Program-made: the position numbers and the translations under genes | Shown here: in pieces, positions 39,200-39,670 of the stretch | How positions within the stretch are numbered: the stretch's first letter is position 1 | How the letters are laid out: every line of letters begins with the position of its first letter | Source: Ectocarpus siliculosus | Taxonomy: Eukaryota > Sar > Phaeophyceae > Ectocarpales > Ectocarpaceae | Length of the DNA: 64,000 nt | NCBI GenBank assembly: GCA_000310025.1 | Contig: FN649736.1 | Span: forward strand, 1,699,254 to 1,763,253 | Direction of reading: 5' to 3' | Notes under the pieces: generated by a model | What the model saw: only the letters and a program-made list of their open reading frames with translations | Database searches by the model: none | What the model was told of the DNA's origin: nothing

Positions 39200-39670
39200 T
39201 ACAATAACGATGAGGTTTTCCTCTTTTGGAAACCGCCGTCCTTTCTGTCTAACTGGACGCCCTATGAGTTCTCGGTTCATGGCATTCGATACGTGTGCGG
39301 CGAACAGTTCATGATGGCGGAGAAAGCCCGCATTTTCGGCGATGATGCCGCTTATGCCAAAATCATGGCTGCCTCCGACCCGAGAGAACACAAGTCCCTT
39401 GGTCGCAAGGTACGCGGTTTTGACCATGCTCTATGGGAGCTCCGGCGCGAGGATGTTGTCTTTTCGCTTTTGTATGCGAAATTCGCCCAAAATGCTGACG
39501 CGCGTGAACGATTGTTGGCTACGGGTGATAGACAGATAGCATAGGCCAGTCCTTATGACGGATTGTGGGGCATTGGTGTTGATGCCTCCGATCCGCGTGC
39601 GGCGTCGCCCTCCAAGTGGACTGGTGAAAACCTCTTGGGCAAAGCGCTTGTTGCGACGCGCGCGCTCCTG
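39200..39670 (+). pseudogene. NADAR (YbiA/RibX-like, DUF1768) domain inside the retrotransposon
   Basis: In the frame shared by gag and protease, the segment reads FLFWKPPSFLSNWTPYEF, then GIRYVCGEQFMMAEKA, FGDDAAYAKIMAASDP, HKSLGRKVRGFD, LYAKFAQN, LLATGDRQIA, a TAG, then ASPYDGLWGIG and WTGENLLGKAL. These are the NADAR landmarks in order and spacing: F-x-x-LSNW, the taE-x-x-M-x-x-KA helix, D-P-x-x-x-K-x-LGR, KF-x-x-N, LL-x-T-G, then E-x-S-P-x-D-x-x-W-G-x-G and W-x-G-x-N-x-LG. The TAG (39542-39544) sits where family members have Glu, consistent with GAG to TAG.

NADAR proteins are N-glycosidases: bacterial YbiA/RibX acts on riboflavin intermediates, and others remove ADP-ribose from guanine in DNA. 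Its role in a retroelement is unknown. It is full length (about 155 residues). Confidence 0.88.

What the first reader, a model, noticed from the sequence alone, without database searches (positions are those of the whole stretch)
39200..39670. A complete NADAR domain carried in the Gag-Pol frame of a Ty3/gypsy retrotransposon
Seen: the F-x-x-LSNW, E-x-x-M-x-x-KA, DP-x-x-x-K-x-LGR, KF-x-x-N and SPYDGLWGIG landmarks lie in one frame between the gag-like region and the protease (DSGS). The domain keeps the same frame as both neighbours. Known: NADAR enzymes are N-glycosidases, and some reverse guanine ADP-ribosylation of DNA. Inference: the element may have captured the domain to counter host ADP-ribosylation of its DNA or RNA, or to alter NAD-linked signalling during replication. 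I do not know of an established description of this arrangement for this kind of element.
Basis: partly seen in the sequence, partly recalled or inferred. Interest (0 to 1): 0.88.

Follow-up and report, generated by a model that had tools for sequence, protein, structure and literature searches.

The report
NADAR enzyme inside algal Ty3 retrotransposons
The window holds a worn-out copy of a brown-algal jumping element that carries a built-in enzyme domain able, in relatives, to strip ADP-ribose from nucleic acid; this pairing was published in 2025, and the new detail here is that less damaged copies seem to make the enzyme only when ribosomes read through a conserved stop signal.

Summary
Window 39224-39673 encodes a NADAR domain (PF08719, 159.5 bits, one TAG inside) in the Pol frame of a decayed Ty3/Gypsy element (about 38486-46023). 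It is no accident of this copy: 120 of 142 scored related reverse transcriptases in the genome have NADAR upstream. Nor is it unknown: Dinatale et al. 2025 (PMC12477816) reported a YbiA-type NADAR at the Pol N-terminus of one Gypsy lineage of the brown alga Ectocarpus. Added here: (1) catalytic Glu, Lys, Glu kept in 77, 73 and 76 of 79 copies, median dN/dS 0.17-0.25; (2) a gag stop, UGA in 48 of 48 loci of six families, followed after 8-9 nt by a predicted pseudoknot, as in murine leukaemia virus; (3) related elements with the stop layout but no NADAR; (4) similar NADAR-Pol proteins on unnamed contigs. Likely mechanism: readthrough puts a NADAR hydrolase into the particle, where it clears ADP-ribose from the element's nucleic acid. 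Architecture is shown, readthrough is comparative inference, the substrate is a guess. The 'gag-like' stretch is the Pol linker; this copy has lost gag.

The parts
38486..39196 (+). Low-complexity N-terminal linker of Pol; start of homology to other copies; gag and the UGA/pseudoknot region are missing 5' of it in this copy
   Evidence: blastn of six g1 copies to window, 94.8-97.6%; no Pfam match
39224..39673 (+). NADAR domain (YbiA type), interrupted by TAG at 39542-39544
   Evidence: PF08719 159.5 bits; pieces E=1.6e-29 and 2.4e-9
39962..40246 (+). Aspartic protease region with LDSGS at 40040-40054; frame ends at 40244
   Evidence: RVP_2 E=0.0033, below Pfam cut-off; motif in sequence
41219..41692 (+). 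Reverse transcriptase
   Evidence: PF00078 E=9.7e-31
41968..42276 (+). RNase H
   Evidence: PF17917 E=5.9e-28
43412..43933 (+). Integrase: zinc-binding H2C2 domain and rve core
   Evidence: PF17921 E=9.2e-12; PF00665 E=1.7e-7, 31.9 bits, just below cut-off 32.6
44726..44872 (+). Possible C-terminal chromodomain
   Evidence: PF00385 E=0.038, below cut-off; C-terminal chromodomains reported for Gypsy-12_Ec32 in PMC12477816
45726..46023 (+). 3' LTR, 298 bp, TGTAATGGAG...CTCCATAACA
   Evidence: homology to most other copies stops near 46023; matches an upstream segment of L011; sequence; LTR borders are my reading

Best explanation
This is one decayed copy of a Ty3/Gypsy lineage of a brown alga (Ectocarpus or a near relative) that captured a YbiA-type NADAR domain, probably once and before its families split, and has kept it under purifying selection. 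In less damaged copies ribosomes make Gag and, by occasional readthrough of an in-frame UGA helped by an 8-9-nt spacer and a pseudoknot, a Gag-linker-NADAR-protease-RT-RNaseH-integrase polyprotein. NADAR is thus delivered into the virus-like particle in small amounts beside the element's RNA and cDNA. Most likely it acts there as an ADP-ribosyl N-glycosidase, removing ADP-ribose (or a similar ribosyl adduct) from bases or ends of the element's own nucleic acid so that reverse transcription or integration can proceed. Shown: architecture, copy number, frame layout, conserved active site, purifying selection. Inferred by comparison: readthrough and pseudoknot. Inferred from homologues: catalysis. 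Guess: substrate and purpose.
For: 150 scored NADAR matches of 230 candidates in the genome, all 150 over the Pfam cut-off; 24 of them in frames of 2014-2580 aa, two of these 24 with a stop inside the match. 120 of 142 scored RT matches have NADAR upstream on the same strand, with distances clustered near 1393, 1432, 1465 and 1495 nt. Active site: E35 77/79, K42 73/79, E115 76/79, W123 77/79, aligned to E43, K50, E125 and W133 of the P. nicotianae NADAR solved with ADP-ribose (PMC11543638). Median dN/dS 0.165-0.245 in six dS bins, 65 open copies. UGA at the gag/pol boundary in 48 of 48 distinct loci found with the codon left free, six families, 47 anchored on both flanks. Pseudoknot: best offset 8 or 9 in the six representatives; other positions of the same loci reach the score in 0.0000, 0.0324, 0.0006, 0.0000, 0.0000, 0.0092 of cases; dinucleotide shuffles 0.022 or less in 6 of 6. 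Closest intact relative P0002 folds like NADAR-ADP-ribose 8bau, TM 0.92. TE NADARs plus P0002 group together (SH-aLRT 87, below the tool's 95 mark).
Against: No enzymatic, translation or transposition data. The pseudoknot scoring rule was chosen after looking at the sequences. Against the synonymous-codon null only 3 of 6 families are individually below 0.05, and families are related, so combined p values overstate. Two of 13 sequences checked (L007, L056) have lost the stem at the expected offset. In family g5 both fetched copies have stops 42-59 codons before the UGA, so an open gag frame was not seen there. NADAR evolves faster than RT: dN/dS 0.22 against 0.03 in the one pair compared at useful distance. 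Related families do without it. No DarT match in the genome. In family g2 the first in-frame Met after the UGA lies 72 aa before NADAR, so internal initiation is possible.
Confidence: 0.5

Rival explanations
1. NADAR serves RNA processing or sanitation of retrotransposition intermediates not related to host defence, as Dinatale et al. suggest: for example clearing ribosyl by-products left by RNA end repair.
For: Proposed in PMC12477816; an RNA-repair role of viral NADARs is discussed in PMC9503650 (passages). Same location logic: next to RT inside the particle.
Against: No substrate data; cannot be told from the counter-modification view with sequence alone. PMC9503650 itself favours macromolecular ADP-ribose as target for eukaryotic RNA viruses.
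Confidence: 0.25
2. NADAR acts on soluble ADP-ribose or NAD-derived signals of the host, lowering an antiviral or stress signal during element expression.
For: Proposed for phage NADARs in PMC9503650 (passages).
Against: A domain made only as part of Gag-Pol and probably particle-bound is poorly placed to deplete a cellular signal (inference); no host signalling system was looked for beyond DarT and PARP.
Confidence: 0.1
3. The domain is now a structural or nucleic-acid-binding module without catalysis.
For: It evolves faster than RT in the one pair compared by domain; three of 69 open copies of full length carry a shifted block inside the domain.
Against: Catalytic Glu, Lys, Glu and pocket Trp/Arg are kept in 73-77 of 79 copies.
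Confidence: 0.1
4. The UGA is not read through; Pol is made from a second promoter, splicing or internal start, or UGA encodes selenocysteine.
For: In Tca2, with a similar UGA plus predicted pseudoknot, readthrough was not found in yeast and a downstream start was used (PMC2194720, passages).
Against: A NADAR-less relative has an in-frame TAG at the same place, which does not fit selenocysteine; UGA in 48 of 48 loci and the predicted structure with exchanged pairs argue for selection on the stop. No SECIS search was made.
Confidence: 0.2

Closest known systems
NADAR-bearing Gypsy lineage of Ectocarpus (e.g. Gypsy-12_Ec32; Dinatale et al. 2025, PMC12477816; abstract, section 5 part 1 and passages seen)
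   Same: [quoted passage not shown] the window's genome shares Pol pieces at 94-97% with Ectocarpus sp. CCAP 1310/34 proteins
   Different: The main text has no occurrence of readthrough, read-through, stop codon, frameshift or pseudoknot; supplements not seen
Murine leukaemia virus gag-pol readthrough signal (as summarised in PMC2194720, passages seen)
   Same: pol in the same frame as gag, stop codon, 8-nt spacer, then pseudoknot
   Different: UGA instead of UAG; spacer not purine-rich; no readthrough measured
Tca2 of Candida albicans (PMC2194720, passages) and RIRE2 of rice (cited in PMC2754532, passages)
   Same: LTR retrotransposons with an in-frame gag stop or readthrough candidates; Tca2 has UGA, 8-nt spacer and predicted pseudoknot; RIRE2 is gypsy-type
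   Different: No NADAR mentioned in what I saw; in Tca2 no readthrough was seen in yeast
YbiA-subfamily NADAR proteins (P. nicotianae NADAR 8bau; E. coli YbiA 2b3w)
   Same: Fold of the nearest relative P0002, active-site Glu/Lys/Glu
   Different: Not fused to Gag-Pol; here the domain is part of Pol
Betaretroviral dUTPase upstream of protease (recalled, no call)
   Same: Nucleotide-cleaning enzyme embedded beside the protease in a recoded product
   Different: Different enzyme, different recoding mode

Membership tests
Ty3/Gypsy LTR retrotransposon | Order PR-RT-RNaseH-IN | tested here: met
Ty3/Gypsy LTR retrotransposon | Flanking LTRs | tested here: inconclusive
   3' LTR 45726-46023 found; no 5' LTR in this copy (no direct repeat of 40 nt or more in 36000-48000)
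Ty3/Gypsy LTR retrotransposon | gag with zinc knuckle | tested here: met
   In other copies L006, L030, L053 by reading and in relative L111 by zf-CCHC over cut-off; absent from the window copy
NADAR, YbiA subfamily | Profile match over cut-off | tested here: met
NADAR, YbiA subfamily | Glutamate (not Asp or His) at the position of E125 | tested here: met
   76 of 79 copies Glu; window copy has a stop there
NADAR, YbiA subfamily | Guanine ADP-ribose hydrolysis | not testable with these tools
   Activity known for other members (PMC11543638, section 12 read)
MLV-type gag-pol readthrough signal | gag and pol in one frame, separated by one conserved stop | tested here: met
   TGA in 48 of 48 loci, six families; upstream frame open in L006, L030, L053, L044, L049, L060 and L061 and L087. 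Not seen in g5: L086 and L090 have further stops 42-59 codons upstream
MLV-type gag-pol readthrough signal | 8-nt spacer, then pseudoknot | tested here: met
   Offset 8 in g1, g2, g3a, g4 and 9 in g3b, g5; prediction only, scoring rule chosen after inspection
MLV-type gag-pol readthrough signal | Purine-rich spacer | tested here: not met
   Spacers hold 3-4 purines of 8 (counted on the sequences)
MLV-type gag-pol readthrough signal | Measured readthrough | not testable with these tools
   Needs a reporter
Counter-defence gene against nucleic-acid ADP-ribosylation | Host enzyme that makes the modification | tested here: inconclusive
   DarT none; PARP-like exon hits 4 of 15 scored

The most novel reading that the evidence does not exclude
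A retrotransposon lineage placed a captured nucleic-acid de-ADP-ribosylating enzyme into the low-abundance readthrough arm of Gag-Pol, so that a repair or counter-defence hydrolase is packaged with reverse transcriptase; this implies that brown algae (or reverse transcription itself) mark retroelement nucleic acid with ADP-ribose.
Probability: 0.3. Interest if true: 0.8.

Novelty: already known. Interest (0 to 1): 0.45.

Why it matters
The role of eukaryotic YbiA-type NADARs outside toxin-antitoxin pairs is open (PMC11125620, passages). A lineage of mobile elements that keeps one with its active site across families saturated at synonymous sites, and seems to express it through a recoding signal next to reverse transcriptase, points to nucleic acid as substrate and gives a simple system to test it. 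It would also add Ty3 elements of stramenopiles to the users of stop-codon readthrough with a pseudoknot.

Tried and rejected
Chance or misread motif: rejected. Host gene inserted in one copy: rejected. Host-derived domain: not supported; a host-like NADAR exon with splice-site-like borders lies at C24:331144-331393, about 50% identical to the TE domain, and the Ectocarpus protein P0074 does not group with the TE clade (long branch); single-domain trees are too weak to name the donor. P0074 in the own genome: no near-identical gene among 142 scored matches (best 54%). Environmental viral contigs: one scan, 5 pattern stretches, none confirmed. MAFFT alignment A1 of the UGA region puts the 3' stem arms of different families in different columns, so I did not use it for pair counts; pairs were tabulated by script. 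No LTR pair in the window copy, so it was not dated. Integrase tail: chromodomain only below cut-off. Two of my own readings were dropped on checking: a count of 54 UGA loci held six loci twice, 48 are distinct; and high dN/dS of L069, L096 and L108, first taken as relaxed decay, comes from one shifted block inside the domain, so they and L072 were left out of the final table. Rows left out elsewhere: the tree used 83 rows, 7 TE rows and 76 of the 121 proteins then held; 23 duplicate fetches were dropped from the 79-locus set.

Full report
WHAT IS THERE. The window is C11:1699254-1763253 of a 189.46-Mb assembly in 492 contigs. A Ty3/Gypsy element lies at about 38486-46023: Pol linker, NADAR, protease motif, RT, RNase H, integrase, a sub-threshold chromodomain and a 298-bp 3' LTR. 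It is decayed: stops at 39197 and 39542, frame end at 40244, no gag, no 5' LTR found. The stop at 39542 falls on the codon aligned with the predicted catalytic glutamate; copies with an open domain exist elsewhere.

ORGANISM. Decayed relatives of the same family appear as proteins of Ectocarpus sp. CCAP 1310/34, and Pol pieces of that strain are 94% (over 63% of the query) to 97% (over 27%) identical.

NOT A ONE-OFF. NADAR matches in the genome: 150 scored of 236 candidates by protein, 150 of 230 by Pfam profile, all 150 over cut-off. RT matches: 142 scored of 546 candidates. Of these 142, 120 have a NADAR upstream on the same strand, 115 of them 1.38-1.67 kb away, with sharp modes; 22 have none in the list, and 41 of 161 merged NADAR places have no RT in the list. 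The lists are capped and some copies are truncated, so some misses may not be real. Clustering of 69 open NADAR copies at 85% amino-acid identity gives seven groups with three or more members plus three single copies.

PRIOR ART. Dinatale et al. 2025 (PMC12477816; [quoted passage not shown] Listings for NADAR or YbiA with retrotransposon or transposable element (20 of 104 papers shown; 67; 87; 88) showed no other paper that looked relevant; those others were not opened. So the core finding is known.

ENZYME. Of 79 distinct loci, 77 keep E35, 73 K42, 75 R69, 76 E115 and 77 W123. These align with E43, K50, R79, E125 and W133 of the oomycete NADAR solved with ADP-ribose; mutants of the E. coli C7 counterparts of E43, K50 and E125 lose or weaken guanine-ADP-ribose hydrolysis or toxin rescue (PMC11543638, section 12 read). 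The nearest intact database relative, P0002 (63%), models at pLDDT 96 and matches 8bau with TM 0.92. dN/dS medians for 65 open copies: 0.245 (dS 0.02-0.1, 232 pairs), 0.214 (0.1-0.3, 66), 0.219 (0.3-0.6, 8), 0.193 (0.6-1, 28), 0.221 (1-2, 105), 0.165 (over 2, 392); 1181 pairs saturated. With all 69 copies the 0.3-0.6 bin was 0.519 (21 pairs); 13 of those 21 involve the four copies with shifted blocks. In one pair NADAR has 0.22 against 0.03 for RT; that NADAR includes a shifted N-terminus in L072.

GAG-STOP-POL. In L006, L030, L053, L044 and L049 the frame upstream of Pol is open up to a single TGA, and it carries a gag knuckle where the fetched stretch reaches it (L006, L030, L053). L060 and L061 and L087 are likewise open upstream in that frame. 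In g5 both fetched copies have further stops 42-59 codons upstream, so gag was not read there. Left free in a fuzzy search, the codon is TGA in 48 of 48 distinct loci: g1 17, g2 9, g3a 13, g3b 4, g4 3, g5 2; 47 anchored on both flanks. TGA is followed by C in all six representatives. After 8 nt (g1, g2, g3a, g4) or 9 nt (g3b, g5) a stem starts; its loop pairs with a segment 9-12 nt behind the stem. First-stem pairs vary in step (U-A/C-G, A-U/G-U/G-C, C-G/U-G); g3b and g5 have a U-U at the outermost place. The second helix differs in sequence between families yet pairs in each, weakest (4 bp) in g2 and g4. Controls: other positions in the same loci reach the site's score in 0.0000, 0.0324, 0.0006, 0.0000, 0.0000 and 0.0092 of cases (g1, g2, g3a, g3b, g4, g5). 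Dinucleotide shuffles: 0.000-0.022. Synonymous shuffles: 0.000, 0.165, 0.095, 0.003, 0.033, 0.193. Of 13 sequences, L007 and L056 lost the stem. The scoring rule was set after I had seen the sequences and the families are related, so pooled p values (5e-12 and 3e-5) are only a guide.

RELATIVES WITHOUT NADAR. L111 (C24; its RT is 51% identical to that of L082) has gag with a zinc knuckle (zf-CCHC over cut-off), an in-frame TAG, a linker and a DTGS protease motif; Pfam finds no NADAR in the 707-aa Pol piece at E up to 1. L082 (C60; RT 45% to the window's) has an open 1002-aa piece with protease motif (by reading) and RT but no NADAR at E up to 1. Eleven loci match its RT at 89% or more; none has a listed NADAR within 10 kb. 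The stop layout therefore probably predates the capture, or NADAR was lost in these relatives; no rooted RT tree was made.

ELSEWHERE. A 903-aa query found 39 proteins (7996 candidates scored); 25 carry NADAR by precomputed Pfam, 6 named Ectocarpus and 19 without an organism name, many of these on contigs of 0.14-2.5 Mb. In 14 of the 18 Gypsy-like ones among the 19, simple motifs found both the NADAR C-terminal motif and the protease motif, always NADAR first. The lineage is thus probably wider than one species.

HOW IT PROBABLY WORKS. Position in Gag-Pol means low dose and particle packaging; conserved catalytic residues mean hydrolysis; neighbours are RT and protease. Removing ADP-ribose from the element's RNA or cDNA is the simplest reading (about 0.5 for the statement; my odds for its steps: 0.97 architecture, 0.75 readthrough, 0.75 catalysis, 0.4 substrate). 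RNA-end processing, soluble-signal degradation, structural use and non-readthrough expression remain as rivals. Tca2 is a warning: the same look, no readthrough in yeast (PMC2194720, passages). Gypsy-type readthrough candidates in rice are cited in PMC2754532 (passages); I saw no report of it for this lineage (15 of 194 papers shown; 10 of 32 shown).

Noticed in passing
P0160 (database protein, 924 aa, JGI contig of 5690 bp): NADAR (87-237, E=4.6e-38) joined N-terminally to an RT/RNase H of a different, perhaps DIRS-like retroelement: looks like a separate NADAR capture. The DIRS label is my reading of the sequence, not a tool result.
   Followed up: partly
G000 C24:331144-331393 (L112): Host-like NADAR exon with CAG before and GTGAGG after, about 50% identical to the element domain.
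   Followed up: partly
L111 nt 1578-1660: In-frame TAG between gag and pol of a NADAR-less relative, followed by an apparent 8-bp GC hairpin (by eye, not folded).
   Followed up: no
Pol linkers of L006, L030, L044, L061, L082: Short motif SQD(A/V)R in the otherwise low-complexity linker, shared with the NADAR-less L082.
   Followed up: no
G000 C16:5935361-6284772: Five copies of a diverged 3' end/LTR (82-83%) packed in one region.
   Followed up: no
L069, L096, L108: NADAR copies that carry a block of about 40 residues in another frame while the surrounding frame stays open.
   Followed up: partly
G000 C3:3913787 and C489:435177: NADAR in reported open frames of 10887 and 6365 aa; possibly runs of N, not examined.
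   Followed up: no
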